IMG/VR virus record: IMGVR_UViG_3300022847_000008
Span: 1 to 52,487 of that record
Reading direction: 5' to 3' (one strand)
Source of the DNA: a virus
Length of the DNA: 52,487 bases
Each line of letters begins with the position of its first letter. Position 1 is the stretch's first letter. The notes beneath the pieces are model-generated. The model made no database searches. It had not been told where the DNA came from and saw nothing but the letters and a program-made list of their open reading frames with translations. The translations under genes and the position numbers were made by a program. Of the stretch, positions 1,291 through 48,231 are shown in pieces.

Positions 1291-1302
1291 TACATAAGAG
1301 GG

Positions 1303-1414: not shown

Positions 1415-1421
1415 TTAACTT

Positions 1422-2012: not shown

Positions 2013-2039
2013 TACCTTTTTCTATTTAAGAATAGTATT
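2012..2039 (+). promoter_or_regulatory. Possible promoter, TTTACC-N16-TAGTAT
   Basis: Placed by analogy with 3040-3068, because it follows the same duplicated block. TTTACC at 2012-2017 and TAGTAT at 2034-2039; the -35 box is weak. Confidence 0.35.
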
Positions 2040-2088
2040 CAAAAAGTTAGAAGAAACCACTACCCACTACCCACTACCCACTAAAAAA

Positions 2089-2883: not shown

Positions 2884-2896
2884 AAGGCTCGGAATC

Positions 2897-2935
2897 AGCG
2901 GGATGGACTGAAAAGTTCGTCCCGCTTTTTCTTTC
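2897..2935 (+). terminator. Rho-independent terminator
   Basis: AGCGGGA at 2897-2903 pairs with TCCCGCT at 2920-2926, followed by a T-rich tail. It closes the gene at 2089-2883. Confidence 0.8.
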
Positions 2936-2946
2936 CCCTAAATAGC

Positions 2947-3040
2947 ACAAGTCTTTTCCCTTTGTGCAATAAATTTAGACTATCATGGATTTAAAATTTG
3001 GTCAATACATTTATGGACCTAAATTAAATGAAAATGTTCT
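2947..3040 (+). repeat. Upstream block, copy 2
   Basis: Second copy of the block at 1908-2012: 52 bp identical (2947-2998) and a 20-bp identical tail (3021-3040). Here it includes a 6-bp GCACAA/TTGTGC stem. A looser third version of the tail is found at about 3402-3424, just upstream of the DUF932 gene's promoter. Confidence 0.85.
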
Positions 3041-3068
3041 TGTAATACTTTGAAATGCTGGCTAGTGT
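3040..3068 (+). promoter_or_regulatory. Promoter, TTGTAA-N17-TAGTGT
   Basis: TTGTAA at 3040-3045, a 17-nt spacer and TAGTGT at 3063-3068. The -10 box ends 9 nt before the ATG at 3078. Confidence 0.5.
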
Positions 3069-3077
3069 ATTCCCTCA

Positions 3078-3230
3078 ATGAAAAATCTTACCACTCGAAA
3101 ACCTCTTCCTTCCTTCTTAGAAGACTTGCAAGCCATTCGCAAGGGTCAACCGCCCACAACGAAAGCTTTCAAATCTCGAAAGGAATACACTCGCAACCCT
3201 AAGCACAAAAAAAACCATGGCAATACCTAG
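3078..3230 (+). CDS. Small basic protein, 50 aa, overlapping an RHH gene
   Basis: Fifty codons from ATG 3078 to TAG 3228-3230. The product (MKNLTTRKPLPSFLEDLQAI at the N-terminus) is strongly basic in its second half. It overlaps the next start codon (3217) by 14 nt, so the two genes are translationally coupled. A short polypeptide followed by an overlapping ribbon-helix-helix gene is a layout seen in toxin-antitoxin pairs, but the short protein matches no toxin family that I recognise; it may simply be a partner of the RHH protein. Confidence 0.55.
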   Translation: MKNLTTRKPLPSFLEDLQAIRKGQPPTTKAFKSRKEYTRNPKHKKNHGNT

Positions 3231-3408
3231 AAATTCAGCAATGTCTTTCCGTCTTCCTGATGATGTCAAAGCAGGCTTGCAAGCCATCGCAGCAAAGCAC
3301 GATCTTTCTATGTCAGATGTCATTGTGAAATTTTGTCGCGATGGTTTGAAAAATTGTGGAAATGTAAAGACTTTGAATCCAACACTTTACACAATTGAAC
3401 AAAATTAA
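3217..3408 (+). CDS. Ribbon-helix-helix (CopG/Arc-type) DNA-binding protein
   Basis: 63 residues. Residues 9-45 follow the RHH pattern: a beta strand (MSFRLPDDV), helix A (KAGLQAIAAKHD), then the turn LSMSD and helix B (VIVKFCRDGLK). Proteins of this family bind operator DNA as dimers through the paired strand. An internal ATG at 3241 (MSFRLP) would give a minimal RHH and is a possible alternative start. The overlapping basic 50-aa gene and the DUF932 gene 100 bp downstream are possible partners or targets. It probably regulates the duplicated-promoter genes around it, which is an inference. Confidence 0.8.
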   Translation: MAIPRNSAMSFRLPDDVKAGLQAIAAKHDLSMSDVIVKFCRDGLKNCGNVKTLNPTLYTIEQN

Positions 3409-3420
3409 ATAAAAAAGTTC

Positions 3421-3449
3421 TTGTCTTTTAGATAAAAATAAAATAGATT
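3421..3449 (+). promoter_or_regulatory. Promoter for the DUF932 gene, TTGTCT-N17-TAGATT
   Basis: TTGTCT at 3421-3426 and TAGATT at 3444-3449, exactly 17 nt apart, following a degenerate copy of the duplicated upstream tail. The leader to the ATG at 3511 is about 55 nt. Confidence 0.5.
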
Positions 3450-3510
3450 TAATCCAAGTTAGAGACAACCTCTTACTGAAAACCAAAACCCAAATAGGAA
3501 AAATACTACT

Positions 3511-4524
3511 ATGAGCGCAAACATCTTCGAACGCGATATTCAAACTGGACTCTCACAAGCATGGCACGGAATGACGAACATTGTCGAGTGCATCAATCGT
3601 GAAAACTCCGGAATCGATTATGACATGGACATCGTTCCGCTGTACATCGACGGAAAAGACGGCGAAAAAATCGAAACTGATCATCGACAAATCATCTCTC
3701 TGGATGATTGTCTTCCTATCGGCAAACCGGTAAGCAACGCATATTGTCTTATTTCGAATCCTCGGATTTGGGACATGGTTAACGAGTCTCTGGCCGGAAC
3801 GAAACATGACATCGTTTCAGTCGGAACCGTGGATGATCGTTCCAAGGGTTTTATCACGGTCAAACTTGACGAAGACTTCCAAGCAGCATCTCGGAACACG
3901 GAACCACTCTTTAACATCTTATGGGGACATGGTGGAAACATTGCATTGATTGCGCGTTCTTCGTTCACCGTGACGGTTTGCGCCAACACCTTCGCAATGA
4001 ACCTCGGACGAAAAGGCAAGGATTTGAATCTGAGTGTTAAGCACACCAAAAACGCTCTCACACGTATCGAGGGGATGGAAGATGCGATTGAAACGTACTG
4101 TGGAGTCAAAGCAGAGTTTGAACTGGCAATGAACTCCCTCGAAGCGCAACCTTGCAATGAAGAGAACGCACGAAAGATTATCGGCGGAATCCTTGCCCCT
4201 GTTGGCTTTGAGTCGAAAGAATTGTCGCAACGTGGAAAGACTCGAATGGCCAACACGGTTGACCGTCTATCGACTCTCTTCATGAGTGGTGCCGGGAACA
4301 CAGGAAGCAACCTTTGCGATGTCTTCCAAGCGTCCACAGACTACTTCACACACGAATCAAGTGGCGGGGACAATCCGGAGAATGCAATGAGGCAATTCGT
4401 TTCCTCGGAGTTCGGAAGCGGTCAACGTATGAAGGAACTGTTCTTCGACACACTCACGGATGAGGATGAACTCGGACGGGTTACAAGTCGAGGGGAGAAA
4501 GTTCTCTTGGCAATGGCAAGCTAA
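3511..4524 (+). CDS. DUF932 (phage/plasmid-like) protein
   Basis: 337 residues. It matches the DUF932 family layout: an N-terminal segment with HGM and a run ending in the polar PVSNAYCLISNP, the central SFTVTVCANTFAMNL signature (about residues 150-165), and the C-terminal FQASTDYFTHES block (about 275-286). Family members are widespread in phages and plasmids, usually as single-copy accessory genes; their molecular role is not established. The gene has its own promoter and a very strong terminator, and a base composition like the rest of the left-hand cluster. Confidence 0.85.
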   Translation: MSANIFERDIQTGLSQAWHGMTNIVECINRENSGIDYDMDIVPLYIDGKDGEKIETDHRQIISLDDCLPIGKPVSNAYCLISNPRIWDMVNESLAGTKHDIVSVGTVDDRSKGFITVKLDEDFQAASRNTEPLFNILWGHGGNIALIARSSFTVTVCANTFAMNLGRKGKDLNLSVKHTKNALTRIEGMEDAIETYCGVKAEFELAMNSLEAQPCNEENARKIIGGILAPVGFESKELSQRGKTRMANTVDRLSTLFMSGAGNTGSNLCDVFQASTDYFTHESSGGDNPENAMRQFVSSEFGSGQRMKELFFDTLTDEDELGRVTSRGEKVLLAMAS

Positions 4525-4547
4525 TAGGGAAAGTAAAAAAGGAATCA

Positions 4548-4583
4548 GGGGAGGAACTCGAAAGGGTTCCTCCCCTTTCTTTG
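4548..4583 (+). terminator. Strong rho-independent terminator
   Basis: A perfect 10-bp stem GGGGAGGAAC (4548-4557) / GTTCCTCCCC (4566-4575) with an 8-nt loop and TTTCTTTG tail. It ends the left-hand cluster. Confidence 0.95.
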
Positions 4584-4800
4584 TTTGATCTGTTACAATG
4601 GTACGCAATGTTAGAGGGTCAAGATGGTTTGCAATGCATCGAGGATTGTCGAGGACAGGCTAGGAAATCTGGGGAAGGGTTGCCCCTCACCGGAAGGGTC
4701 GGAGGACCTAGGGAAGATCCTCGGGACAACCCACAATCCGGAACGAATGTCAATCAAAAAAACATCGAAAATATAAAACGAATATATTTGACAAGGTGCG
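4584..4800 (+). other. Intergenic GC-rich, structure-prone segment
   Basis: No convincing gene. From about 4610 to 4750 the sequence is much richer in G and C than its surroundings and holds nested inverted repeats (GGGTTG with CAACCC, CCGGA with TCCGG, GAGGA with TCCTC). A TGTTACAAT extended -10-like box is at 4591-4599. TTGACA at 4788-4793 followed after 17 nt by TATGCG could be another plus-strand promoter. A structured small RNA is possible. Confidence 0.35.
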
Positions 4801-4816
4801 TTTTTTTTGGTATGCG

Positions 4817-4862
4817 AAAAAAAAACACCGACCTGTCAAAATTTCGCTTGACTTCGGTGTTT
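4817..4862 (-). terminator. Minus-strand terminator of the Cas12/CRISPR unit
   Basis: Read on the minus strand, AAACACCGA (4862-4854) pairs with TCGGTGTTT (4831-4823), with an inner GTCAA/TTGAC stem (4852-4848 with 4839-4835), and is followed by a long T run. It lies just after the last minus-strand gene of the unit. Confidence 0.8.
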
Positions 4863-4869
4863 CAAAATG

Positions 4870-5061
4870 TTACCATGGGGGGCGATGCCGAATCTGGGGA
4901 ACAGGGGTATATCCTCCTGAGAGAACCACCCATCTTATTCCCAAGGTACCCATATATTTATCTTGGTATAGTTCATGGTTTTCCGGTTCCGATTCGAATT
5001 CTTTTACGAACTTATCCCACAATTTTTTGGATTTTTTGGTTCTAGATTTCCACGGTTTCAT
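4870..5061 (-). CDS. Small basic protein, 63 aa, at the end of the CRISPR unit
   Basis: Starts inside the last codons of the gene at 5042-5758 (20-nt overlap) with a good Shine-Dalgarno-like AAGGA about 9 nt before its ATG, and stops 8 nt before the strong minus-strand terminator. The N-terminal half is charged and helical (KKSKKLWDKFVKEFESEPEN); the C-terminal half is not family-like. No domain is recognised. Overlap, ribosome site and terminator position argue that it is a real, coupled gene; the odd C-terminus leaves the possibility that it is a truncated remnant. Confidence 0.5.
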   Translation of the reverse strand: MKPWKSRTKKSKKLWDKFVKEFESEPENHELYQDKYMGTLGIRWVVLSGGYTPVPQIRHRPPW

Positions 5062-5758
5062 ATTTATTTCCTTTGTTATATTCTTTCAGCACGGTATCTG
5101 CCCATAACCACCCTTTATTATATAACCTATTATCATATTTTAATTTGTAGAATCCTTGTTTATGGATTCCCATATCTCTAGAAAATGCCGCGATGTTATG
5201 GACAATATATTCCTTTTTATCGGGAGATATTAAAATATCCCATCTTTTAAGATTTTTTGGTTTTTTTGGTGTTTCGATCTTTCTGAACCCTTTATAATAA
5301 AAAACCGTTCCTTTTATCATTCTTACAATGATATTGGGTTCGAGACCATGTTCTAAACAGAACTCTAATATATGATCAACCGCATGTATATTATCATCGG
5401 GATCATATAGGTATATAGGGGTTTCTAATTTGACCGGATTATACCAACCATTTATACTTCGGTTACAATTTTTTAAAAGTAGTGAGAACTCTGTTAGTCT
5501 TATTCCGGTTTCTTTGGAACAGATTTTCCGACTCGGGAAAGTTTTTATTGTTCCATCTATATATTTTAGGGTTATCGGTATGGAAGGTCTGCCATGATTA
5601 TCTTTATGTTTTTTTTGTAGGTTTAGTAAAAATGATCGGTTAACGATAGATGGTGCGGATCTTTTCAGGTGATTCATGCAGTATTTTAGACCATTAATCC
5701 GATAATTATCTATCAGAAATTTCTCATCTTTTTTGGTCCATGTTTTATTTTTTTTCAT
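5042..5758 (-). CDS. Myb-like plus triple NUMOD-like repeat DNA-binding protein
   Basis: 238 residues. The N-terminal 45 residues (WTKKDEKFLIDNY...LKRSAPSIVNRS) look like a SANT/Myb-type helical DNA-binding module. Three repeats of about 45-50 residues follow, each with a short beta hairpin, a helical FCLEHGLEP-type or FSRDMGIHK-type segment and a closing KGF/KGW or NGW, the pattern of modular DNA-binding repeats on phage homing endonucleases. No GIY-YIG, HNH or other nuclease motif is present. It starts only 10 bp from the CRISPR array, in the same minus-strand unit as Cas12, and may be a sequence-specific binding protein, a regulator, or a homing endonuclease that lost its nuclease domain. 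Confidence 0.65.
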   Translation of the reverse strand: MKKNKTWTKKDEKFLIDNYRINGLKYCMNHLKRSAPSIVNRSFLLNLQKKHKDNHGRPSIPITLKYIDGTIKTFPSRKICSKETGIRLTEFSLLLKNCNRSINGWYNPVKLETPIYLYDPDDNIHAVDHILEFCLEHGLEPNIIVRMIKGTVFYYKGFRKIETPKKPKNLKRWDILISPDKKEYIVHNIAAFSRDMGIHKQGFYKLKYDNRLYNKGWLWADTVLKEYNKGNKYETVEI

Positions 5759-6660: not shown

Positions 6661-8283
6661 CTACAAAGTCTCAGGTATTGCAACCTTTTTATTAATCTTT
6701 TTCAAATTATTTTGTGATCCTACCACATCGGCATTGGCACTATGTCCACAATCAATGCATTCGAACTTTGCCTGTGTCTTTCTATTGTCTCTGGAAACGT
6801 GTCCACAGTCGGGACATGTCTGGGAAGTGTATTTAGGATCGATTTCGATAACCTTTGCACCTCTCCATGATGCCTTATATTTCAATTGGTTATTAAAAAT
6901 TCCCCAACCCTGTTCCAAGATCGACCTATTCAGACCTGCCTTTTGTTTAACATTTTTACCATGTTCATCTTTGGTTCCTTTACCGGATTTGGTCATGTTA
7001 GAAATTTGTAGATTGTCTATCCCGATGGTTCCATATTTATCGGTGATCACATTAGAAACATGATGTCTAAAATTTTTCAAAATTTCATTGATTTTATATT
7101 TCGTTTCAACCAGTTTTTGATTTGATCTAAACCAATTATTACTATGTCTCTGGAAATGTTTATAATCTGGATTTGTCTTGTCGGACATTTTTAGTTTCCA
7201 GTTGATTTCTATATAGTTCATCGGTTCGGCTCGTTCTAATCTCGAAATAATCGTCTGGATCATCTTCACCCGATTTTTCAAAATCGCCAGTCTTTTCTTA
7301 GAGGTTTTGTCTAATTCAAAAATTCGGGTCTTTTGGGAACTATCGGTGGTGGTCAAGAATTTGGTTACACCCAAATCTAGCCCTACCTGTGATTCGATGT
7401 GTTGATGTTCTGGTTCTATTACATTGGTCTTTAGACCATAAGAAATAAACCACTTCTTACCTATATTTGAAACTGTATAAGAAGTGATAATCCCTATGGG
7501 ATAAACATCTAATTTTGCCTTGATCGGTGTCTTCAAAGTTTGAATAAATACCTGTTGTTTTTCAAAATTCGGTCCTTTCAGATTTCCGGTAGAAAATAAA
7601 AGATTAGGAATTTCCCACTTTTTCATAAACTTGGGTTTTCCGAAATTATCAACTCTCTTTCCTTTTGCGGCTTTTTTCTTTTTTGCACCAACGAGATGTT
7701 GAACACTTTTTCCGTTCTTACAAATTTCGTAGAACGTGGTCCATGCCTTATCATTAGATTTTAAAATCCCTATGACCAGTGCCGAAGGTAGTTTATATTT
7801 TCCGGTTCCGACCTTATACATTCCTCCCTCTCCACATGCACCCAGATAACTTTTAGATGAATCTTTTAGATCAACATAATTGGGATATCTTTCTAATATA
7901 ATCTTATCTAAAAGTTCTCGATCTGGTCCCTTCTTATCTATGGTTAATTCTGTCCTGATTTCTTTAAAACCATTACGAATCGCGTCTTTGATCGGATATT
8001 GGTCCGAGAGTTGGTTATTAATAGTAACCCAGAAGTCTTTATCTTTTAGAACCTTAATTTCTTCTTCGGTTTTTCCAACATCGGTAAGTGCCTTTATTTT
8101 AAGTTCGACGATATCTCGTTTCTTTTCATCGAAAAATCTTTCCGAAACTGTTTGATTCCATAAAATTTCATTGCCATATGCTCTGGCACCATTTTGCCAA
8201 TCTTGGAAAATTTTGATTTGATCCTTTGTAGGATAAAGTCTATAAATCCTACCGTATTTTTTTAATATAATTTCTTTGTCCAT
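6661..8283 (-). CDS. cas12: Miniature type V CRISPR effector (Cas12f-like)
   Basis: 540 residues. The C-terminal half is a TnpB/Cas12 RuvC domain: RuvC-I GLDLGVTKF (D303), RuvC-II IGIDNLQIS (D423 where Glu is usual), a four-Cys zinc finger CPDCG/CIDCG (C490, C493, C509, C512) and RuvC-III ANADVVGSQ (D519). The first 300 residues are a lysine-rich recognition region much longer than that of TnpB (whole protein about 400 aa). Total length and spacing of the acidic residues are close to Un1Cas12f1 (529 aa; catalytic residues 326, 422, 510 from memory). No tnpA or transposon ends are seen. Co-location with an array and anti-repeat RNA points to a working crRNA/tracrRNA-guided effector; whether it cuts or only binds is open because of D423. 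Confidence 0.88.
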   Translation of the reverse strand: MDKEIILKKYGRIYRLYPTKDQIKIFQDWQNGARAYGNEILWNQTVSERFFDEKKRDIVELKIKALTDVGKTEEEIKVLKDKDFWVTINNQLSDQYPIKDAIRNGFKEIRTELTIDKKGPDRELLDKIILERYPNYVDLKDSSKSYLGACGEGGMYKVGTGKYKLPSALVIGILKSNDKAWTTFYEICKNGKSVQHLVGAKKKKAAKGKRVDNFGKPKFMKKWEIPNLLFSTGNLKGPNFEKQQVFIQTLKTPIKAKLDVYPIGIITSYTVSNIGKKWFISYGLKTNVIEPEHQHIESQVGLDLGVTKFLTTTDSSQKTRIFELDKTSKKRLAILKNRVKMIQTIISRLERAEPMNYIEINWKLKMSDKTNPDYKHFQRHSNNWFRSNQKLVETKYKINEILKNFRHHVSNVITDKYGTIGIDNLQISNMTKSGKGTKDEHGKNVKQKAGLNRSILEQGWGIFNNQLKYKASWRGAKVIEIDPKYTSQTCPDCGHVSRDNRKTQAKFECIDCGHSANADVVGSQNNLKKINKKVAIPETL

Positions 8284-16586: not shown

Positions 16587-19500
16587 TTAATCTAAGAGAC
16601 ATGCACCACCCGCACATGCCGCTTCATTTTTATGCTCGGTCATATCCTTCTTTTCTTTGATATTTTCAAATTTAAAGTTTTTTTCGCATTGTTTAAAGGA
16701 TTTTTCGAGAATATCGAACACTTCTGGGTGTGGTGGTTGACTATATGGCAAATATGCATAGTCACCACCATCGAACGGAATCAGACTAATACCAATGTAG
16801 GATTCTCGATTTTCGATCATCCATTCTTTAATATTATTCTTCTCATGTTCATGGTAGCTGACTGTTAGACTTACGTTGTGGGTATTATCCCCTTCGACAT
16901 GCCCCGGTAGAATCCAATTATCATATACGTTTTTCATACGTTCTAACAACTGAATGGATGTTTCCTGTGTTCGAAGTAGTGTCGTCTCATACATACTGAT
17001 AGGAATTTGTATAATAATATCACCCTCTTTAAATGTGTCGGGCACGATGAAATTAGGGAAGTATCTTTGTAGTGCCTTTCCCAATTTCGATTCCTTATCT
17101 AATCGGACTCTCCGTAGATATTTGATAGCATGACCTGCATGGATTCCTGCCGTAGTTCCTAACCATGACGAGGCTGTTCCTGATGGTTTAACACACGTAA
17201 TACGTTTAGCCGGATTAATACCTATTTTTTCAGCCCATTTTTTATTAATTTCGACTGCTAGTTTCGCACCTTCTTGTAAATTTTCAGGGGTTAAAATAGC
17301 AATATTTTCGGCTTGTCCGGTAATGGAAACACCCAAAAGTGATTCCTGTTCGGCATTTTTCTTCCATTCTGGCTGGATGTAAGAAAAGTTGGTATAAGAT
17401 GCTTGAAGTGTACCGATAATTGTAGCAGTTTCTACCGCCTTTAACCAATCTTCTTTTGATAAACATTTGGACGCATTAACCTCAGTTAAGTTACAAACAC
17501 CAAATCCTCCCACGGAGCCAGAAAAAGAAATTTCTGCGCATGGATTTAGTCCGGCATCATCGTGGTTGGTCCAAACCAATCCTGGTTCTGCCTGACCACC
17601 CGCGAAACATGCATCAATAATCATGCGAGCCTTTTCTTCCGATTGTGGATCTGCGCGATTAACGACTGCTGAATTATTGGCTCGGGCCAATTCTGGATAT
17701 TTTTCCCACCATTTTCCAGACTTGCAGTTCAGCATGACAGTATCTTCGGGATCGAATAACACGATTGTTGCTGAATTGTGGGTTAGTATTCCATTAATGA
17801 AAAATGAATGATCCTCTTCCACTTCGATATCAAAAACTTCTTCCTCCATGTTCGTCTTCAATACCCCCAAGATATTGACTGGTATAAAGTCTACGGCTTG
17901 CTTTTCTTGCATTATTTCATAAGAGATGTGCGGGTTATTATTCCACAAATTGTATTTTTCTCCGTGCTTTGATGCAAGGTTTTTCAGAAACGAGAGACCG
18001 CTACTTTCTCTGCTTTTTTTAGTAACCACGTAGTCATGAGCTATTTTTATGGAATAGTCACTAATTTTTTCTACAAGTATATTTCTAAAACTAGAAGATA
18101 TGGATTTTATTATATGTTCGTCCGATTTTTGCTCTCTGTGTTTAACTAACCTTCTTGTGGGAATGCCACTAAGAGAGATAAGGGATTGTAATTCTTTTGC
18201 AAAATTTTCGTATTTTGTTGAAACAATGGCAACTTGACCAGTGCCAATGCCATCTTCTGTTGTTTCATTTCTTACGGTACCGTCACTATCCAGAATTCCT
18301 GCAATGAACGCCATTCTTATCTCTTCTCTGGCTTGCATTATCCAAGTAGGAATTTTTATGGGAGAATTGGGTTGTTTTAGGTTTTCCAGCCCCCATTTTG
18401 CGATATTTCCTCTACTCGTAGTGAACTCTACCACTTTTTTTCTTTCATATAGTGAAATAGTTTTGATAAAGAGTGGAAATATATTTTGAATTTTTTCAAT
18501 TATTTTTGGGTAATTTTTGGGAGCAGCAATTCTAAACTTACAATCCAAGTTTGCATTATCTGCACGTTTTCTAACAGAGCATGAACCGTTCCCAAGAAAG
18601 TATCCAACAAACCATGCCGTATCTTCGGTTAACTCTGGTGGGGTATATTCAAGCGATGATGGCATTTGGGTTTCTGTTCCCTCGATTTTAGTTTTATTAA
18701 AAACCAAAGTGTCTTCCACGCCAAGTTCATTTGCCAGTTTTTCCGATACGCCTCCATATAGGTCAGTTGCAGTAATCCACTTATGGTTTTCCGTAGAAAA
18801 GAAAGAGCCAATGTTTGTTTTTATTTCAAGTAGATTTCTACTGCCATTGTTAACTTTTGAAACAACTTTTTGAAACCTATTCTTGTGAGTTAATACCATG
18901 TCTCCATTTTTTACGTCCCTAAGTTTTACACACCCACGGTCTGTGAGAACGTCGTCAGTCCCCAACAAGCACCTCCTAACACCTCCCACTACCACGCAAT
19001 CTGAAATGAGGCAACAAATCCGATGAGTCTCGAAGGATGTTAATTGTTTACCGATAGATTTTCGTAAAATTTGTCTAATATTCGAGTGCATATGAATCAA
19101 CGATTTTGGACCCGATGCCGTGCCTCCTGTAGATAATGGTTCGCCCATCAATCTAATTTGGGAATAATCAAATTGTATATCAGGATTTTCGAGAAGTTTA
19201 ATCAAACTATTTGACCAACCCTCCGCAGAATCGGGGATAACGAATTTCTCGGTATTAATACCATCACTAATAATCGGTAATTGGGAAATGTGCCTTTGTT
19301 TAACACTATAACCAACACCAGCACCAGACATCGATTGATAAAAAAGATCAGCCATATCGACAAATTTTGTGATATTTAAAAATGTACAATTAAATGCGCG
19401 ATTTTGTCGCCGTTCGATTGGTTCACCACTAAATTGCATACAATTATGAGTCACAATCATTTCCCTACCAGCGAGAAATGTTCTATCTGGTGAAGAAACA

Positions 19501-20651
19501 ACAAAACATGTTGCTGATCCTTTTTTAACAAAATCTACAGATATAATTTTTCTATGTTCTGTTTGTTTCAATATATCTTTTCTTATATTTTCTTTCTTTC
19601 TAGGTAATCTGGAGATTTCGAGGCCGGATGTGAACCTAATAATATGAGACGGTTTATGGTTTTCACTTTTTGGTTTTATATCTTCCTGAGTATATTTTAT
19701 TCCTAAACTCGATATGAGTTCTACGATACCAGAAATCATTTTTTTATTTGTGTTAGAAAAATGTACCTTTCCGTTCTTATCTATACAGCCATCGGAATCG
19801 ATAAGACCCTGTAATAGCGACAATCTCTGCTCAATAGATCCATTGAGATATTCTTGTGGAATATGTTTATTATTTATTAAATCATATTTGCATAAATCGG
19901 TAGAAAGTCCACGACATGTCCAAGTCCATATGTTGGTTGATTTACTTTGTATTCCTTCATATCCAGCATTTTTATATTGTTCGGAGAAGAACGAAGAGTC
20001 TTCGACACTACTTGAATATTGGTATTCTGGTGAGTATCCATCACCAAGCCATAAACCCATTATATATGGATCTATAAATAGTTCTTTATGAGGTAGTTTG
20101 ATGGGCTTTGGATTATATATACAAAAATTATTAACCTTTCCTTGGGTTAAATGTTCTTTTATATGCTTTGTTGTTACAATGCGCGTTTTTCCAGAAAGTC
20201 TATCATCAGCAGATGCAACTACCCATAGATGTTCATCGCATGATGTTAATTTTGATCCATCACTAAAACATACATCATATAAATCTACGTTATCAAATTT
20301 TAAAACCTTTTCCACACATGTTGGTTCACCTATGGAGTCAAAAATCATATCACCAGTTTTTATCTCACCGACTATCGACCATCCGATATCTGTTCTAATC
20401 GGGGTACTATCTTCCAATGCTCGCATAGCAGGGATCGCCATTTCTTTATAAACGGGATCATAGGCTTTGGTGATTTCTTCTCTAAGATGTGGAAATCTTT
20501 TGCAGTGCATTTCCAAATTTCGAGTAATCGTCTCATATTTGGTTTCTCGTCTTTGGTGTTCTGGGAGATATTTTGCGTAGGTTCGGTGGTGGACTAGATT
20601 GCTTAGAAATTCTTTTGACATGTGTTTATATTTACATAATTCCGTCCACAT
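16587..20651 (-). CDS. nrdJ: Class II (B12-dependent) ribonucleotide reductase with two inteins
   Basis: 1354 residues, of which 629 remain after removal of two inteins (78-403 and 561-959). The exteins match monomeric adenosylcobalamin-dependent ribonucleoside-triphosphate reductase: MQFSGEP, AFNCTFLNI (C422), MSGAGVGYSV, LMGEPLSTGGTASGPKS, NPCAEIS (C1038), GVCNLTEVN (C1053), VKPSGTASSWLG, and a C-terminal redox pair C1346/C1351 (CAGGAC). It would supply deoxynucleotides for phage replication without oxygen or a small subunit. No ATP-cone domain is seen. The start at 20651 lacks a strong ribosome site; the ATG ten codons in is an alternative. Confidence 0.92.
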   Translation of the reverse strand: MWTELCKYKHMSKEFLSNLVHHRTYAKYLPEHQRRETKYETITRNLEMHCKRFPHLREEITKAYDPVYKEMAIPAMRALEDSTPIRTDIGWSIVGEIKTGDMIFDSIGEPTCVEKVLKFDNVDLYDVCFSDGSKLTSCDEHLWVVASADDRLSGKTRIVTTKHIKEHLTQGKVNNFCIYNPKPIKLPHKELFIDPYIMGLWLGDGYSPEYQYSSSVEDSSFFSEQYKNAGYEGIQSKSTNIWTWTCRGLSTDLCKYDLINNKHIPQEYLNGSIEQRLSLLQGLIDSDGCIDKNGKVHFSNTNKKMISGIVELISSLGIKYTQEDIKPKSENHKPSHIIRFTSGLEISRLPRKKENIRKDILKQTEHRKIISVDFVKKGSATCFVVSSPDRTFLAGREMIVTHNCMQFSGEPIERRQNRAFNCTFLNITKFVDMADLFYQSMSGAGVGYSVKQRHISQLPIISDGINTEKFVIPDSAEGWSNSLIKLLENPDIQFDYSQIRLMGEPLSTGGTASGPKSLIHMHSNIRQILRKSIGKQLTSFETHRICCLISDCVVVGGVRRCLLGTDDVLTDRGCVKLRDVKNGDMVLTHKNRFQKVVSKVNNGSRNLLEIKTNIGSFFSTENHKWITATDLYGGVSEKLANELGVEDTLVFNKTKIEGTETQMPSSLEYTPPELTEDTAWFVGYFLGNGSCSVRKRADNANLDCKFRIAAPKNYPKIIEKIQNIFPLFIKTISLYERKKVVEFTTSRGNIAKWGLENLKQPNSPIKIPTWIMQAREEIRMAFIAGILDSDGTVRNETTEDGIGTGQVAIVSTKYENFAKELQSLISLSGIPTRRLVKHREQKSDEHIIKSISSSFRNILVEKISDYSIKIAHDYVVTKKSRESSGLSFLKNLASKHGEKYNLWNNNPHISYEIMQEKQAVDFIPVNILGVLKTNMEEEVFDIEVEEDHSFFINGILTHNSATIVLFDPEDTVMLNCKSGKWWEKYPELARANNSAVVNRADPQSEEKARMIIDACFAGGQAEPGLVWTNHDDAGLNPCAEISFSGSVGGFGVCNLTEVNASKCLSKEDWLKAVETATIIGTLQASYTNFSYIQPEWKKNAEQESLLGVSITGQAENIAILTPENLQEGAKLAVEINKKWAEKIGINPAKRITCVKPSGTASSWLGTTAGIHAGHAIKYLRRVRLDKESKLGKALQRYFPNFIVPDTFKEGDIIIQIPISMYETTLLRTQETSIQLLERMKNVYDNWILPGHVEGDNTHNVSLTVSYHEHEKNNIKEWMIENRESYIGISLIPFDGGDYAYLPYSQPPHPEVFDILEKSFKQCEKNFKFENIKEKKDMTEHKNEAACAGGACLLD
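17775..18971 (-). other. Intein 2 of the ribonucleotide reductase (399 aa)
   Basis: Residues 561-959. It starts with C561 (CLLGTDDVLTDRG), has TEN-HKW as block B, two LAGLIDADG motifs (FVGYFLGNGS at 681-690, FIAGILDSDG at 782-791), and ends FINGILTHN with Ser960 next. Removal joins GGVRR to SATIVLF, a normal class II sequence. The splicing and endonuclease motifs look intact. Confidence 0.93.
19443..20420 (-). other. Intein 1 of the ribonucleotide reductase (326 aa, Ala-1 type)
   Basis: Residues 78-403. Extein logic puts the boundary after PAMR, so the intein starts with Ala78 (ALEDSTPIRTDIGW), not Cys or Ser, and ends VTHN before Cys404 (CMQFSGEP). It has LAGLIDADG motifs IMGLWLGDGY (197-206) and LQGLIDSDGC (280-289). 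N-terminal Ala inteins use direct attack by the +1 Cys. Confidence 0.88.
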
Positions 20652-35577: not shown

Positions 35578-35612
35578 AAAAATAAAGACTTGAAAAGGTC
35601 TTTATTTTTTTG
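35578..35612 (+). terminator. Rho-independent terminator after the sheath gene
   Basis: AATAAAGAC (35581-35589) pairs with GTCTTTATT (35598-35606), followed by T residues. It overlaps the next promoter. Confidence 0.85.
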
Positions 35613-35618
35613 TATAAT
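35590..35618 (+). promoter_or_regulatory. Promoter for the homing endonuclease, TTGAAA-N17-TATAAT
   Basis: TTGAAA at 35590-35595 in the terminator loop and TATAAT at 35613-35618, 17 nt apart. The ATG at 35634 is 15 nt downstream. Confidence 0.7.
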
Positions 35619-35633
35619 AGTGTAATTAATACT

Positions 35634-37427
35634 ATGACATACGATCTCAAAATTATAAACGACATTAAAACAAATCTCATAAAAACAGATGGAGAAACCG
35701 TAAATTCCGCAATTATTCGACGGGATTGGTTCAAGTCATCGGAAACATATAAAACTATATTAAAAATTACTCATTTTTTGGATATCAAAAATCCATCAGT
35801 AAGTGAAAGAATATATTGTATTATGAATGGCATAGAAAAATCTCCTACATGTAAATTTTGTAATATATACGAGAAAAGGTTTGTATCATCTAAGCAAGGA
35901 TACAGATCATGTATCAATAAAAAATGCCAAAGAATGTATAAAAAATGGAAAAGTCCATCAAAAAATAAAATAGATAATTATGCTCAATTATGTTTGGAAC
36001 TATCCGATAAATTTAAATCAAACCAGTATAACCTATCAGAAATCTCTAAATTAAAAGAATATATAGAGATGAAGGTAGATAGAAAATATAAAAATATATC
36101 ATATGTAAATCCGAAGATTATTAAAAATGATTTCGATTTTCTTTTAAGTGCCGTATATTATACCCAAGATATATTACCACTAACATCTGATAAAACATCT
36201 TTAAATATGAGCGAACGGTATTTTTTAATAGTAAATGATCTAAAAACACCCCAAAAATGTTTGTGCGGTAATAATAGAAAATTTTTGAATTTTTATTCCG
36301 GATATCAGAAAGAGTGTGGAAATGTATGTAGGCGCGGGAAGAGGTTAATAGAAATTAAAGACAATGTTTTAGACACCCAAAATATGACAATATTATCAGA
36401 TTTTAATACTCTAAAAAATAATACGTTTCAAATCCAATGTAATGAGTGCAATAAGATCCATGAAAGATCGTTAACCAATGCGCGTTGGATGGATATATAT
36501 TGTCCAACATGTTATGGTGATGCTAATTCTTCAAAGGAAGAAAAAGATGTTTTGGCGTATATCCAAACCTTATATTCTGGTGAAATATTAGAAAATTCCA
36601 AAATCGATAATTTAGAAATAGATATTTTGTTACCCGATATAGGTGTGGGGTTTGAATATGATGGTCTTCTTTGGCATTCTTTTGGATCAAACTTTCCTAA
36701 CAATCAAGACAAAGAAAAAAATAATAAAAATAGAGGATTAATAAAAACCAAAAAATGTGAAGAATCTAATATTAAACTTTTTCATATCAATTCAGATGAG
36801 TGGTATTCTCCAAATAATAAAGATATCTGGAAATCTATGATTCGTAATGCACTGGGAAAATCTAATAGAATATATGCACGAAAATGCTCTATTGTTAACG
36901 ATCTACCATTCGAAGAAGTCCGAAAATTTCTAGAAAATAATCATTTACAGGGGCACGACAAAAGTCCTATAAGATCTGGATTATATTTTGATGGGGAATT
37001 GGTCTCTATTATGACATTTTCAAAACCCAGATTTAATAAATCATATGAATATGAACTTGTTCGTTTTTGTAATAAAAAAAATTGTGGAGTTATTGGTGGT
37101 GCTTCTAAACTATTTTCGAACTTTCTAAAAATTTACAATCCTCTATCTGTTATCAGTTATGCCGACAGACGGTATAGCGGTGGTAATTTATACAAATCGT
37201 TGGGGTTTTCGTTTAAAGAAAATACAAGAATTGGATATTTTTATATTAAAAATATCGGAACCAAAACATATAAAAAAGTATCTAGAGTTTCGGCCCAGAA
37301 ACATAAACTCCCAAAGTTCCTAGAAAAATTTGATGAAAATTTGACCGAAGTTGAAAATATGTTTATGAATGAGTATAGAAGAGTTTGGAATTGTGGCAAT
37401 TCTACATTCATTTATCGTAGACTGTAA
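35634..37427 (+). CDS. Free-standing homing endonuclease, Vsr-like (EDxHD-type)
   Basis: 597 residues from ATG 35634; an upstream TTG at 35610 overlaps the promoter and is rejected. Zinc-finger-like Cys pairs come first (CKFC, CLCG, CNEC, CPTC). The nuclease domain near residues 325-395 has NLEIDILLPDIGVGFEYDGL, LWHS and IKLFHINSDEW, the Vsr-like layout of phage endonucleases described with fractured (split-intein) genes. The C-terminal part (LYFDGELVSIMTFSKPR, ISYADRRYSGG) is the usual DNA-binding/GNAT-like tail of this group. It lies between intact sheath and tube genes in its own promoter-terminator cassette, so it is an intergenic mobile gene. Confidence 0.85.
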   Translation: MTYDLKIINDIKTNLIKTDGETVNSAIIRRDWFKSSETYKTILKITHFLDIKNPSVSERIYCIMNGIEKSPTCKFCNIYEKRFVSSKQGYRSCINKKCQRMYKKWKSPSKNKIDNYAQLCLELSDKFKSNQYNLSEISKLKEYIEMKVDRKYKNISYVNPKIIKNDFDFLLSAVYYTQDILPLTSDKTSLNMSERYFLIVNDLKTPQKCLCGNNRKFLNFYSGYQKECGNVCRRGKRLIEIKDNVLDTQNMTILSDFNTLKNNTFQIQCNECNKIHERSLTNARWMDIYCPTCYGDANSSKEEKDVLAYIQTLYSGEILENSKIDNLEIDILLPDIGVGFEYDGLLWHSFGSNFPNNQDKEKNNKNRGLIKTKKCEESNIKLFHINSDEWYSPNNKDIWKSMIRNALGKSNRIYARKCSIVNDLPFEEVRKFLENNHLQGHDKSPIRSGLYFDGELVSIMTFSKPRFNKSYEYELVRFCNKKNCGVIGGASKLFSNFLKIYNPLSVISYADRRYSGGNLYKSLGFSFKENTRIGYFYIKNIGTKTYKKVSRVSAQKHKLPKFLEKFDENLTEVENMFMNEYRRVWNCGNSTFIYRRL

Positions 37428-37453: not shown

Positions 37454-37996
37454 ATGAGTGGATTATTAGACCAAACCGGAATTGAAAACTTCTATGATGT
37501 AGCATCGGTAAACGATTTTGCAAGAAAAAACTTATTTAGAGTAGTTGCCCTTGGTGGGCAGAGGTTTAATCTTAATGAACTTATCTATATGGAGACAGCA
37601 ATTCTTCCTGAAAGAGAGATCACCAACATCCAAATCCCATTTATGGGATTAGATTTCAATGCGCCGGGAACCGCGAAGTATCCCGGTTCTAGTGATTGGA
37701 ACGTTCTTTTTCGTATGCCTCAAAACCTTTCTATCCGTAGAAAGTTAGAAGACTGGTCGAACTACATATTCAACGACCAGACATCAACGGGTGCATATGA
37801 TATCCCTAATAAGGACGTTTCTAACCAAACTATCATTACTCTGATAGATAAGCAAGGAAATCCAATTAGAACATATACACTCTTCGGGTGTTATTGTCGT
37901 AAAGTCGGAACCTTTGATTTAGATATGAAAGATACTGGAACCCTTGTAACAACAACCGCTTCTATCGCATATCAATATTTCCGTTTATCTCGTTAA
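37454..37996 (+). CDS. gp19: Tail tube protein (T4 gp19-like)
   Basis: 180 residues, close to T4 gp19 (163 aa). Features: ARKNLFRVVALGGQRFNLNE at the start, YMETAILPEREITNIQIPFM, then KYPGSSDWNVLFRMPQN and SIRRKLEDWSNYIFND, and a closing beta strand set ending in ASIAYQYFRL. It forms the inner tube inside the sheath. Follows the sheath gene except for the inserted endonuclease. Confidence 0.93.
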   Translation: MSGLLDQTGIENFYDVASVNDFARKNLFRVVALGGQRFNLNELIYMETAILPEREITNIQIPFMGLDFNAPGTAKYPGSSDWNVLFRMPQNLSIRRKLEDWSNYIFNDQTSTGAYDIPNKDVSNQTIITLIDKQGNPIRTYTLFGCYCRKVGTFDLDMKDTGTLVTTTASIAYQYFRLSR

Positions 37997-44503: not shown

Positions 44504-45190
44504 GTGGCAAGAAAACAGAAACCCATTCCAGTAGTTGATGATGATATTCTAATCAACGGCCAATTCTATAAAGGTAACGAGCAGTTATTAAATAAGAACG
44601 CAAAAATAGGGTTCACTCCAGAGATGTTGGAGGAACTAAAATCTTGCACGAAGAACGTTTTATTCTTTGCAGAAAGACATTTTAATATCATCACCGAGGA
44701 TGGTCGAGAGGTTATTAAACTTAGACCGTTCCAGAAAAAAATTCTCAAGAATCTTAAGAATTTTAAAAGACATGTGTTGTGTTGTACTAGACAGGCAGGT
44801 AAAACCACAATTGTTTCTGTATATGCTCTATGGAAAGCATGTTTCTTTGATCATCAAAGGATTGCTATTCTTGCAAATAAAGGGGAAACTGCCGAACAAA
44901 TTTTCGAACGAGTTAGAATGGCCTTCGAGAATTTACCAATGTATCTCAAACCAGCCGTAAAATCTTGGAGAAAAAATGGTTTCGATCTAACTAATGGTTC
45001 GAGTATCATCATTAGTTCAGCATCTTCTTCTTCTATTCGTGGTAGATCGATTAATTGTGTGTCCGGTGATAGTATAGTAACAATGAGAAATAAATTAACA
45101 GGAGAAATTTTCAAAATTCCTATGAAAAATATCCCAGAAAAAATCGGTGGGATAAAATATTCGGATACCGAATTTATTTTAGATGATTAG
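44504..45190 (+). CDS. terL: Large terminase part 1 (ATPase N-terminal) fused to split-intein N-half 1
   Basis: GTG start at 44504, 228 residues. Residues 1-184 are the N-terminal ATPase part of T4 gp17-type TerL: FAERHFNIITEDGREVIKLR, PFQKKIL, Walker A CTRQAGKTT (94-102), then ILANKGETAEQIFERVRMAF and IIISSASSSSIRGRSIN. At C185 the sequence becomes an intein N-terminus (CVSGDSIVTMRNKLTGEIFK, block A), and stops with TAG after 44 intein residues. Walker B and the nuclease domain are not in this polypeptide. After the TAG the same frame stays open for 28 codons. Full function requires trans-splicing with the next gene's product. Confidence 0.95.
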   Translation: MARKQKPIPVVDDDILINGQFYKGNEQLLNKNAKIGFTPEMLEELKSCTKNVLFFAERHFNIITEDGREVIKLRPFQKKILKNLKNFKRHVLCCTRQAGKTTIVSVYALWKACFFDHQRIAILANKGETAEQIFERVRMAFENLPMYLKPAVKSWRKNGFDLTNGSSIIISSASSSSIRGRSINCVSGDSIVTMRNKLTGEIFKIPMKNIPEKIGGIKYSDTEFILDD

Positions 45191-45606
45191 CTGTATGTCG
45201 AATCGTCAAGAATTACCTATTGGTTGGATGAAAAGAACCGATCATACAAAAACAAAAAAATGATATGGCAGATGTAACAAATTACAAAATATTTAAAAAT
45301 GATGACTTCGAAATCTTAACCAAAGATGGATTTCAGGATTTTAAAGGATTAATTGTTGGGAAAAATATAAATAAACTATTATTAACATTTTCGAACGGCA
45401 AATCATTATTATGCACTCATCATCATAAAATTATGATAGATGATTTAAACTTTATTTATGCACATGATATGGTGGTCGGTGATCACATTTTCGGTGGACA
45501 TATATTGATATCTTCCGAAAATGTTGAGAACGATGAGCCTGTATACGAATTTCTAGAAATTGAAAATAATCACACTTATTATGCCAATGATATATTATCC
45601 AACCAA
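45056..45606 (+). other. Split intein 1 in terminase (44-aa N-half, 114-aa C-half)
   Basis: N-half 45056-45190, C-half 45265-45606, separated by a 74-nt gap. The C-half has a block B-like TFSNGKSLLCTHHHK, and block F/G VYEFLEIENNHTYYAND-ILSNQ, then Cys+1. The last residue is Gln (Asn-Gln, not His-Asn); a terminal Gln is known from a few inteins. The short N-half makes it an atypical split. Confidence 0.88.
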
Positions 45607-45996
45607 TGTCTGATCATTGATGAAGCTGCACATATTCCAAATGATTTGATGAAAGAAATTTGGAAATCTGTCATTCCTACCATCTCGGCCAATAAAAATG
45701 GAGAAATTATAACCATCTCAACTCCTAACGGTGCCGATAAAGATAATAAATTCTATCAATTATATCTAGAAGCTCAAAAAGAAAATAGTATATGGGCACT
45801 AATGTTGGTAAATTGGTGGGAAATTGAGGGTAGAGATGAAGAATGGAAAAAACAGGAAATCGAAACCATTGGATCTTTACATGACTTTTTACAAGAATAT
45901 GAAAATTGTGTAAGTGGTGAAAGTATTCTAGATTTGATAAGTATTGATAACGAATACACCAAAAAATCAATTGAACAACTCTATATCGATATGTAA
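45265..45996 (+). CDS. terL: Large terminase part 2 (Walker B region) between intein C-half 1 and N-half 2
   Basis: 243 residues. 1-114: C-half of intein 1 ending ILSNQ. 115-214: extein CLIIDEAAHIPNDLMKEIWK (Walker B, D119/E120), ISTPNGADKDNKFYQLYLEA (motif III/C-motif STPNG), to HDFLQEYEN. 215-243: N-half of intein 2, CVSGESILDLISIDNEYTKK, then stop. The central extein of only 100 residues can have no enzymatic role on its own. Both ends must be spliced. The ATG at 45265 follows a stop in an overlapping frame, so coupling to part 1 is possible if the TAG is read through. Confidence 0.95.
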   Translation: MADVTNYKIFKNDDFEILTKDGFQDFKGLIVGKNINKLLLTFSNGKSLLCTHHHKIMIDDLNFIYAHDMVVGDHIFGGHILISSENVENDEPVYEFLEIENNHTYYANDILSNQCLIIDEAAHIPNDLMKEIWKSVIPTISANKNGEIITISTPNGADKDNKFYQLYLEAQKENSIWALMLVNWWEIEGRDEEWKKQEIETIGSLHDFLQEYENCVSGESILDLISIDNEYTKKSIEQLYIDM

Positions 45997-46572
45997 ACTC
46001 GATAAAGGACTTTATAGTTCCGTCCCAATCAAACGAGAAAACGCAAACACCAAAAGGAGAGAAACCAATTTTAAATTGTATGGGAATTTTTCACCAAATA
46101 CTTTTGGGGTATTATCCCGATGGTTATTGTCATGAGACCAATACTATCTACGAACTATATAAAAGATATGATAAACAGAAGAATTCTGATAATAGACAAT
46201 CTGAAATTGTCGAAAACTCGGGTGTAATTTTGTAATCATATGGGATATTAAAAAATGAAAAAAAACAATAAAGGTTATAAAATTTTAACACCATCTGGAT
46301 ATCAATCTTTTGATGGTATACGAAAAATAAAAAAGAAAGTATATAAAGTCGAAACCGAGACTAAAATTATTCGGGTTACTCTGGATCATCCATTTCAAGT
46401 GGATGGTAAAGTTGTTTTAACCAGAGATTTATCTCTATGGGATATGTTAGAAACTAAAGCGGGTAAGGAGATGGTTTTAGATATAAGCCCAGATGGTGAA
46501 GAATGGGTTTTTGATCTAATAAATGTAAAAAATGGAAGTATTTATTATGCAAATGACATATTGGTTCATAAC
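45907..46572 (+). other. Split intein 2 in terminase (29-aa N-half, 106-aa C-half)
   Basis: N-half 45907-45996, C-half 46255-46572. The C-half has GYKILTPSGYQSFDGI, VTLDHPFQV (block B-like) and WVFDLINVKNGSIYYAND then ILVHN before Cys+1. The sizes match the atypically split AceL-TerL intein (about 25 + 104 aa, from a T4-type TerL of an Antarctic lake), as I recall it. The 258-nt gap contains a small remnant. Confidence 0.9.
46080..46235 (+). pseudogene. 51-codon remnant between the halves of split intein 2
   Basis: ATG 46080 to TAA 46233-46235. The frame is also open upstream to at least 45987, so it continues the region from before the N-half's stop in another frame. The product (MGIFHQILLGYYPDGYCHET at its start) matches no family that I recognise. 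Its place, where fractured genes usually hold a homing endonuclease, suggests a decayed endonuclease or intein linker. It could also be a real small gene. Confidence 0.35.
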
Positions 46573-47610
46573 TGTTTCCACCCTCCCGGTAAATCTGTCA
46601 TTGATCCTGCCTTATTGGAAAAGCTAAAATCTCAATGCAATGAACCAATTTTGGTTACTGATGATGGTGCATACAAAATATATACACTACCGAAACCCAC
46701 AAGTTTTTATGTGATAGGCGTTGATGTAGGTGAAGGTATCGGTCGAACAAATAGTGTTGCTCAAATATTAGATATATCTGATTTAAGAAATATTGAGCAG
46801 GTTGCTGTTTATGCGCGGAACGATATGAGTCCCTATGTGTTTGGAACCCGTTTAATGGGCATTCTGAACGATTGGGGACGACCTCCGATAGCAATTGAAA
46901 CAAATAATTACGGTCAACAAATATTGGATGTGTTGAATAATACACACAATTACGAATCGTTGGTGACTTATAGACCGGATGGTCAATCTTCGCACTACAA
47001 TCGCGAAGGTCGATTGGGAATCTATAGTCATACAAATACCAAATATAAAGGTTTGACGAATTTCCGATATTGGATCGATAGTATAAAGGCCGTTAAGTTC
47101 AACGACTTGGATACTCTTATCGAAATTTCCGAATTTATCCAATTACCAAATTACACATTTGGTAAAAAGAATGATTCTGATAGAGATGATCGCGTATTTG
47201 GATTAGTTTGGGCATTGTTTATGTTAGAACCATCATTAACCAGAATGTTTTTCAACATAGTTGAAACCGATGAACAAGGAAGACCCTTGATTATTACACC
47301 ATTCATCGACAATTCTGATCTAATTAAGAAAAGTCCAATATTTAGTGGTGATGTTAATGTTTATAAAAAAGAAGAAAGTGTGTTTAATCCGTTAGCATTT
47401 ATGCCAACCGCCCCAGATAAAGATTCTACATTAGCAGATGAGGAAAGTATGTTAGGAGGTTGGTTGCTTAAATGGGAACCCACCGATAAACCGTTGAACG
47501 AGTATAAACAATACAATCCAGAAATTATATGGAAATCTGATGATGTTATAAAACAAGAGGAAAGATTAATCGACGAAGATAATTCTAATAGACCAATTTT
47601 TCTATTCTAA
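46255..47610 (+). CDS. terL: Intein C-half 2 fused to large terminase part 3 (nuclease domain)
   Basis: 451 residues. 1-106: intein C-half 2 ending VHN. 107-451: extein beginning CFHPPGKSVIDPALLEKLK, then the RNase H-like nuclease: FYVIGVDVGEG (D157), PPIAIETNNYG (E215) and DRDDRVFGLVWAL (D311/D312), as in T4 gp17. Summed exteins (184 + 100 + 345 = 629 aa) equal the length expected for one T4-type large terminase (610 aa). This enzyme packages and cuts DNA at the prohead portal, so its assembly from three chains is essential for the phage. Confidence 0.95.
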   Translation: MKKNNKGYKILTPSGYQSFDGIRKIKKKVYKVETETKIIRVTLDHPFQVDGKVVLTRDLSLWDMLETKAGKEMVLDISPDGEEWVFDLINVKNGSIYYANDILVHNCFHPPGKSVIDPALLEKLKSQCNEPILVTDDGAYKIYTLPKPTSFYVIGVDVGEGIGRTNSVAQILDISDLRNIEQVAVYARNDMSPYVFGTRLMGILNDWGRPPIAIETNNYGQQILDVLNNTHNYESLVTYRPDGQSSHYNREGRLGIYSHTNTKYKGLTNFRYWIDSIKAVKFNDLDTLIEISEFIQLPNYTFGKKNDSDRDDRVFGLVWALFMLEPSLTRMFFNIVETDEQGRPLIITPFIDNSDLIKKSPIFSGDVNVYKKEESVFNPLAFMPTAPDKDSTLADEESMLGGWLLKWEPTDKPLNEYKQYNPEIIWKSDDVIKQEERLIDEDNSNRPIFLF

Positions 47611-47622: not shown

Positions 47623-48231
47623 ATGAATCAAGCAATCCTAAACAAACAACGCCATGATAAATTCATTATGGTTTTGAGTATTCCACCGATCATGCGAGAT
47701 ATAATTGATGTGGTGTCAGATGATAAATTTGACCCGGATTCTTTACAATTTTCGTGCTATGGTTCCCCGGTCCCTAATGTAAGTATTCCATCTATCGATG
47801 TTCCTTATGGCGGTCAGGTGATAAAAATATCTAGCAATTCTCGACCAGTTTTTCCATCATTTGTATTAACATTTGTCATCGATAATGGTTGGAGAAATTA
47901 CTGGATTCTATTATCGTGGTTAAACTTGTTCAACGATCAAAAAGATGGTTCGACTAGCTATAACCATGGAAATAGATCCGAATCAGAACCTTATGCAGCA
48001 GATAAAAATAATATACCTTTCCGCGATATGGTATCATCCTTTAAGACCTATGCAATCGATGAGTATAATAAAAAAATTATGGGGTTTGATTTTACCAATG
48101 TTTTCCCAACAGAAATAAGCGAAATTGGGTTTTCCCATCAAGACCCATCTGAAATTATTTGTAAGGCATCATTTGCCTTTAACCAACTTCATCCTAAGTT
48201 AATTAGAGATATTGATAAGAACAATTGTTAA
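47623..48231 (+). CDS. Tube-like baseplate/tail protein, 202 aa
   Basis: KIMGFDFTNVFPTEISEIGF and SHQDPSEIICKASFAFNQL form the closing strands of a gp19-like beta fold; WRNYWILLSWLNLFND is a mid-domain helix. It looks like another tube paralogue (gp54-type baseplate-tube junction, or neck-side tail completion). It follows the terminase cluster and starts 12 nt after its end; 3 nt separate it from the hub gene. Confidence 0.6.
   Translation: MNQAILNKQRHDKFIMVLSIPPIMRDIIDVVSDDKFDPDSLQFSCYGSPVPNVSIPSIDVPYGGQVIKISSNSRPVFPSFVLTFVIDNGWRNYWILLSWLNLFNDQKDGSTSYNHGNRSESEPYAADKNNIPFRDMVSSFKTYAIDEYNKKIMGFDFTNVFPTEISEIGFSHQDPSEIICKASFAFNQLHPKLIRDIDKNNC

What the first reader, a model, noticed from the sequence alone, without database searches (positions are those of the whole stretch)
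44504..47610. Large terminase fractured into three genes by two different split inteins
Part 1 (ATPase Walker A) ends in an intein N-half, part 2 has a C-half, 100 extein residues with Walker B and another N-half, and part 3 has a C-half and the nuclease domain. The summed exteins are 629 aa, just what a T4-type TerL needs. Both inteins are split atypically near their N-terminus (44+114 and 29+106 aa), like AceL-TerL. Correct assembly of an essential packaging enzyme thus needs two orthogonal trans-splicing events. I do not recall a described three-piece TerL.
Basis: partly seen in the sequence, partly recalled or inferred. Interest (0 to 1): 0.92.

Follow-up and report, generated by a model that had tools for sequence, protein, structure and literature searches.

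The report
Packaging motor in three trans-spliced pieces
An uncultured T4-like phage, most likely from Antarctic Ace Lake, encodes its DNA-packaging motor as three separate proteins that two different split inteins should stitch into one; related phages do this too, some with four pieces, so essential phage enzymes can depend on several protein-ligation steps at once.

Summary
Three ORFs (44504-45190, 45265-45996, 46255-47610) encode a T4-type large terminase (TerL) cut at two points. Each cut has a short intein N-half (44 and 29 aa, Cys1, then stop) and a Hint-fold C-half (114 and 106 aa) with its own start. Removing the inteins gives 629 aa that align without gaps across both junctions with L186, an intein-less TerL of a close relative (54% identical). 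The region is base-for-base identical in three assemblies. The two inteins belong to different, site-specific lineages; the nearest solved structure is the Cat (AceL/GOS-TerL consensus) atypically split intein.

It is not unique. 25 contigs (about 18 lineages) have a TerL with two or three split inteins; three lineages have four pieces. Cultured Salicola phage SCTP-2 has three TerL pieces in distant loci. The gap at site B holds a relic of a homing endonuclease (HEN) that lies intact between the halves of a sister intein, so HEN-borne fracture, then HEN loss, is the likely origin. Trans-splicing itself is inferred. I found no published three- or four-piece TerL, but key papers were not readable. 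New variant of a known kind.

The parts
44504..45190 (+). TerL piece 1 ORF (GTG start, 228 aa)
44504..45055 (+). N-extein, 184 aa: ATPase first half with Walker A (RQAGKTT)
   Evidence: Terminase_6N 3.6e-10; aligned to L083 and L186
45056..45187 (+). Intein A N-half, 44 aa (CVSGDSIV...), then stop
   Evidence: Cys1 block A; relatives at the same site have tails of about the same length
45191..45264 (+). Gap A, 74 bp; possible tail-end relic of a GIY-YIG homing endonuclease (about 45207-45260)
   Evidence: weak: E 0.72 to HENs of L015/L016/L041 in the same gap; intact GIY-YIG HENs sit here in L015, L034
45265..45996 (+). TerL piece 2 ORF (ATG start, 243 aa)
45265..45606 (+). Intein A C-half, 114 aa, ends in Gln (ILSNQ|C)
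   Evidence: CatC 5.3e-6; AlphaFold/Foldseek best hit 6dsl chain B; A1-site clade
45607..45906 (+). Middle extein, 100 aa: Walker B (CLIIDEA) and coupling motif (ISTPNG)
   Evidence: PHROG TerL family 2; alignment
45907..45993 (+). Intein B N-half, 29 aa (CVSGESIL...), then stop
45997..46254 (+). Gap B, 258 bp, with a relic (46101-46181) of a DUF559/Vsr-like homing endonuclease
   Evidence: E 4.6e-6 to the intact HEN between the site-B halves of L060/L061
46255..47610 (+). TerL piece 3 ORF (ATG start, 451 aa)
46255..46572 (+). Intein B C-half, 106 aa, ends HN|C
   Evidence: CatC 1.9e-10; clade with L034_B and L060_B
46573..47607 (+). C-extein, 345 aa: RNase H-like nuclease domain (ORF3 residues D157, E215, D311, D312 invariant)
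   Evidence: Terminase_6C 0.0056, weak alone; alignments A1 and A5; L186

Best explanation
The gene for the large terminase is fractured into three genes by two naturally split inteins at two insertion sites: one just before Walker B (site A), one just before the nuclease domain (site B). The three polypeptides are made separately. IN-A of piece 1 docks on IC-A of piece 2 and IN-B of piece 2 docks on IC-B of piece 3; each pair completes a Hint fold and trans-splices, yielding one 629-aa TerL. No piece alone has a full ATPase site (Walker A in piece 1, Walker B in piece 2) or both ATPase and nuclease. The likely origin is two separate invasions by intein-plus-homing-endonuclease elements, each with the HEN gene inside the intein so that the gene is broken there, followed by decay of both HENs. 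Shown: anatomy, homology, empty sites, separate intein lineages, HEN relic at site B. Inferred: splicing, cognate-only pairing, order of events, function of the product.
For: ORFs and motifs. TerL profile continuous over junction A. The computed spliced sequence aligns gap-free over both junctions with intein-less TerLs L083 and L186 (617 aa, 54% over 609 columns; the +1 residue is Cys in the window, Leu/Lys in L186). IC halves match Cat, gp41-1 and VidaL inteins by sequence and IC-A by fold. Intein tree: window A in an 18-row clade of site-A1 inteins (SH-aLRT 94-96), window B with two site-B inteins (97). Identical in three assemblies. Same design in about 18 lineages; dispersed pieces in cultured SCTP-2 and CP81, where only association of separate proteins can rebuild TerL. 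HEN relic in gap B. No Rfam intron in the window.
Against: No splicing assay or junction peptide. The site-A intein ends Asn-Gln instead of His-Asn, which may slow splicing or favour cleavage (general knowledge of intein chemistry); but Gln is common at this site. An intact TerL elsewhere cannot be excluded because the record is a 52-kb fragment (none found in the window). The Terminase_6C match of piece 3 alone is weak.
Confidence: 0.88

Rival explanations
1. The three proteins assemble non-covalently into a working motor; the intein halves act only as docking domains or are splicing-dead.
For: Split genes that work without ligation are known (genes-in-pieces RNR, cited in PMC3322345). Site A lacks the usual terminal His-Asn.
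Against: Catalytic residues kept: Cys1 at both N-halves, TxxH in both C-halves, N or Q at the end and Cys at +1 where the intein-less relative has Leu or Lys. The same signatures recur in the lineages read.
Confidence: 0.06
2. RNA-level joining: the gaps are introns or other spliced or bypassed segments, so that N- and C-halves are translated as ordinary cis inteins.
For: Campylobacter phage IBB_35 TerL was described as carrying both an intein and an intron with a HEN (PMC3322345); ICP1 terL transcripts are spliced (PMC10448857).
Against: No Rfam hit in the window. Gap A is 74 bp, too short for a group I intron. In SCTP-2 and CP81 the pieces lie 20-170 kb apart on different strands. The C-halves have their own start codons.
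Confidence: 0.03
3. Assembly error or a decayed pseudogene.
For: Metagenomic contig; other contigs in the survey do look frameshifted (L030, L042).
Against: Identical in three assemblies; all three frames open with catalytic residues kept; same arrangement in many other contigs.
Confidence: 0.02

Closest known systems
AceL-TerL and GOS-TerL split inteins (reviewed in PMC11766414), consensus intein Cat (PDB 6DSL)
   Same: Same host protein, same insertion site as site B (AceL locus L093/L094: FE|CVYGD...SHN|CEFLGS), same short N-half with long C-half; best sequence and fold match.
   Different: The AceL locus is a two-piece TerL. The window carries a second split intein at another site, giving three pieces, and its site-B intein lies in a different branch from AceL.
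Fractured genes of Dassa et al. 2009 (gene broken in two by a split intein with a free-standing HEN between; from memory, paper not held)
   Same: Split intein breaks an essential phage gene; HENs (GIY-YIG, DUF559/Vsr-like) lie in the gaps of relatives.
   Different: Two or three breaks in one gene; in the window both HENs are gone apart from relics.
Salicola phage SCTP-2 TerL genes gp534, gp267, gp224 (MF360958)
   Same: Three TerL pieces with two matching split inteins; all three annotated as terminase large subunit by the depositors.
   Different: Breaks at Walker A and at LLY|CDE instead of A and B; pieces dispersed at 429, 256 and 216 kb on both strands; an extra cis intein in gp224.
Two-piece TerLs of cultured phages: Shewanella Thanatos-2, Vibrio VP-1, Serratia 92A1, Providencia PSTRCR_127, Campylobacter CP81
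   Same: Homologous split inteins in TerL at site A2 or site B.
   Different: One split intein each (VP-1 also has a cis intein at Walker A).

Membership tests
Atypically split inteins (AceL-TerL/Cat type) | Short N-half (about 25-45 aa) starting with the nucleophile Cys1 | tested here: met
   44 aa and 29 aa, both CVSG[DE]S
Atypically split inteins (AceL-TerL/Cat type) | C-half of about 100 aa forming most of a Hint fold, homologous to Cat | tested here: met
   CatC 1.9e-10 and 5.3e-6; for intein A the model matches 6dsl, TM 0.80 on target
Atypically split inteins (AceL-TerL/Cat type) | Block B TxxH | tested here: met
   THHH in IC-A, TLDH in IC-B
Atypically split inteins (AceL-TerL/Cat type) | C-terminal His-Asn followed by Cys/Ser/Thr | tested here: inconclusive
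   B: HN|C met. A: NQ|C, a Gln-terminal variant shared by 17 of 26 inteins at this site
Atypically split inteins (AceL-TerL/Cat type) | Trans-splicing activity | not testable with these tools
   needs expression
T4-type large terminase (gp17 family) | Walker A, Walker B and coupling motif of the packaging ATPase | tested here: met
   RQAGKTT in piece 1; CLIIDEA and ISTPNG in piece 2; Terminase_6N
T4-type large terminase (gp17 family) | RNase H-like nuclease with acidic residues | tested here: met
   D157, E215, D311/D312 invariant in alignment A1; Terminase_6C only 0.0056 alone
T4-type large terminase (gp17 family) | Genomic neighbourhood of structural genes of a contractile-tailed phage | tested here: met
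   tail sheath, tail tube and baseplate genes nearby
Fractured gene with free-standing HEN between intein halves | Intact HEN gene between the halves | tested here: not met
   only a relic in gap B (E 4.6e-6) and a doubtful one in gap A; intact in relatives

The most novel reading that the evidence does not exclude
Multiple fracture of TerL is not only parasite debris but is kept because it gates the packaging motor: assembly needs all three or four polypeptides and two or three independent splicing reactions, delaying active terminase until late in infection.
Probability: 0.08. Interest if true: 0.93.

Novelty: new variant of a known kind. Interest (0 to 1): 0.8.

Why it matters
Natural split inteins are normally described as one break per protein. 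Here a single essential enzyme depends on two, in relatives three, simultaneous trans-splicing reactions, with breaks at six distinct points packed around its catalytic motifs. That makes cross-reactivity between coexisting split inteins a natural selection problem that can be tested directly, offers many new pairs that have coexisted in one cell (useful for multi-fragment protein ligation), and shows TerL as a hotspot where parasitic elements can break the packaging motor repeatedly without killing the phage. The HEN relic and the cis, split, HEN-bearing and empty alleles of the same sites give steps of the path from mobile intein to stable split gene.

Tried and rejected
A junction-specific DNA pattern found nothing; I had left one residue out of the pattern. 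An alignment of distant site-B proteins was too diverse to scan with. A simple electrostatic pairing idea does not explain specificity: charges at pH 7 are IN-A -1, IC-A -10, IN-B -4, IC-B +2. A GIY-YIG relic in gap A is only suggestive (E 0.72). Group I intron explanation: no Rfam hit. I first read Serratia 92A1 and Providencia PSTRCR_127 (three ORFs each) as three-piece TerLs; the middle ORF is a GIY-YIG HEN, so they are two-piece. L042 and L030 look broken by frameshifts, not inteins. Papers: ten searches found no description of a TerL in three or more pieces; Dassa 2009 is not held and the original AceL-TerL paper did not come up, so priority is not proven.

Full report
WHAT IS THERE. Three adjacent ORFs on the + strand, 44504-45190 (228 aa), 45265-45996 (243 aa) and 46255-47610 (451 aa), lie among tail and baseplate genes. 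ORF1 is 184 residues of terminase with Walker A followed by 44 residues of intein N-half; ORF2 is a 114-residue intein C-half, 100 residues of terminase with Walker B and the coupling motif, and a 29-residue N-half; ORF3 is a 106-residue C-half and 345 residues with the nuclease acids. Pfam finds Terminase_6N in ORF1 at 3.6e-10 and PHROG TerL family 2 runs on from ORF1 into ORF2 at the same profile position. Frames this long are not expected by chance (longest 166 aa in 500 resamples). Two other assemblies of the same phage, L002 and L003, are identical over the whole region.

EMPTY-SITE TEST. L186, from a 111-kb contig, is a close relative whose TerL is one uninterrupted 617-aa frame. The computed splice product of the window (629 aa) aligns to it with 54% identity and no gap near either junction: IRGRSIN|CLIIDEAAHIPND against PRGTTSN|LLIIDEMAHCPND, and FLQEYEN|CFHPPGKSVID against FDQEYGN|KFHDPNKSVVD. 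At the first residue after each junction the window has the Cys that splicing needs. L083, another intein-less relative, gives the same picture and has a native Cys at both places.

THE INTEINS. Both C-halves hit the Cat consensus intein best in the PDB, 1.9e-10 for B and 5.3e-6 for A, followed by gp41-1 or VidaL among others. The AlphaFold model of ORF2 is confident over the C-half (block means 79-95 for residues 11-110) and low in much of the terminase part and the N-half tail, as expected for fragments; its best Foldseek match is Cat (6dsl chain B, TM 0.80 on the target). A tree of 82 non-redundant C-halves groups by insertion site far more than shuffled labels (21 changes against a mean of 42.8; few columns, many unresolved forks). 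Window intein A sits in an 18-row clade made only of site-A1 inteins (94-96), window intein B with L034_B and L060_B (97). So the two are separate, site-specific lineages, not a recent duplication. Intein A ends in Gln; 17 of 26 non-redundant site-A1 inteins do, against none of 31 at site B.

KIN. An AceL-TerL sequence recalled from memory found loci 99% identical to it (L093, L094) in viral contigs; these are two-piece TerLs cut at the same place as site B. A partial AceL-TerL locus (L105) comes from the same IMG sample number, 3300022851, as a near-identical copy of the window, and AceL-TerL is reported from an Antarctic saline lake (PMC11766414); I infer that the window phage lives in Ace Lake.

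SURVEY. Scans of viral contigs and profile parsing, with reading of the actual ORFs, show TerL inteins at six insertion points: W (Walker A, GK|C...N|T), A0 (RGKS|C), A1 (|CLIIDE, the window's site A), A3 (LLY|CDE), A2 (IDE|CAF) and B. Sites occur empty, with a cis intein, or split, in mixed combinations. Twenty-five contigs carry two or three split inteins; grouping near-identical contigs by eye gives about 18 lineages. Three lineages have three split inteins and hence four pieces: L053 (contig ends inside the nuclease), L064/L110/L111 (two assemblies), and L112. The window type (A1 + B) recurs in L034 and L040. These counts are from the best 80 hits per scan, so they are lower bounds and not frequencies; the number of independent origins was not established.

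CULTURED PHAGES. Thanatos-2, VP-1, 1.244.A, Serratia 92A1, Providencia PSTRCR_127, Va1 and EniLVp02 have two-piece TerLs. Campylobacter phage CP81 has its pieces more than 20 kb apart on opposite strands. Salicola phage SCTP-2 has three TerL genes, gp534, gp267 and gp224, at 429, 256 and 216 kb, on both strands, with intein halves at W and A3. That arrangement cannot be repaired by local RNA splicing and supports trans-splicing as the general mechanism.

ORIGIN. Relatives carry HEN genes between the halves: GIY-YIG types at site A (L015, L034, L040), DUF559/Vsr-like types at W (L053, L064) and at B in L060/L061. The window's 258-bp gap B keeps a stretch matching the C-terminal part of the L060/L061 HEN (E 4.6e-6), and L060 carries a sister intein of window B. 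The 74-bp gap A may keep the last residues of a GIY-YIG HEN but the match is not significant. The simplest history is two invasions by HEN-bearing fractured inteins followed by loss of both HENs; the intein pairs stay because the gene cannot be expressed without them. L098/L099, where an AceL-like intein is in cis, show that split and fused states exist within one intein lineage.

MECHANISM AND LIMITS. The best-supported mechanism is two protein trans-splicing reactions producing one TerL. Shown here: anatomy, homology, empty sites, conserved catalytic residues, separate lineages, recurrence. Inferred: splicing, specificity of pairing, timing. The literature searches found no TerL in three or more pieces, but the library lacks several central intein papers.

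Noticed in passing
L053 1837-7242; L064 1806-6842; L112 about 500-5500: TerL in four separate ORFs with three split inteins (Walker A, Walker B region, pre-nuclease).
   Followed up: yes
L107, L108, L263 (Salicola phage SCTP-2 MF360958): Cultured jumbo phage with TerL in three genes dispersed over more than 200 kb on both strands, plus a cis intein in gp224.
   Followed up: yes
45595-45609 and site-A1 inteins of relatives: C-terminal Gln (ILSxQ|C) is common in site-A1 inteins (17 of 26), a possible natural Gln-terminal intein family.
   Followed up: partly
16587-20651 (- strand): B12-dependent ribonucleotide reductase of 1354 aa interrupted by what look like two cis inteins with LAGLIDADG domains.
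   Followed up: partly
35610-37427: Free-standing HNH-type homing endonuclease gene (phrog_3339, 3.8e-95) between tail sheath and tail tube genes.
   Followed up: no
37454-37996 and 47623-48231: Two tail tube-like genes (both phrog_45), about 10 kb apart.
   Followed up: no
6661-8283 (- strand): Transposase-like gene (phrog_506, 1.8e-54) in the phage genome.
   Followed up: no
L098, L099: AceL-TerL-like intein in cis (fused) at site B, next to split versions of the same intein in other contigs.
   Followed up: partly
L264 (Vibrio phage Kuja), L266 (Salmonella kuttervirus pSC20): TerL with a cis intein at the Walker A site in cultured Ackermannviridae.
   Followed up: partly
L010 and L269 (Campylobacter phage CP81): TerL in two pieces more than 20 kb apart on opposite strands, split at IDE|C.
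   Followed up: yes
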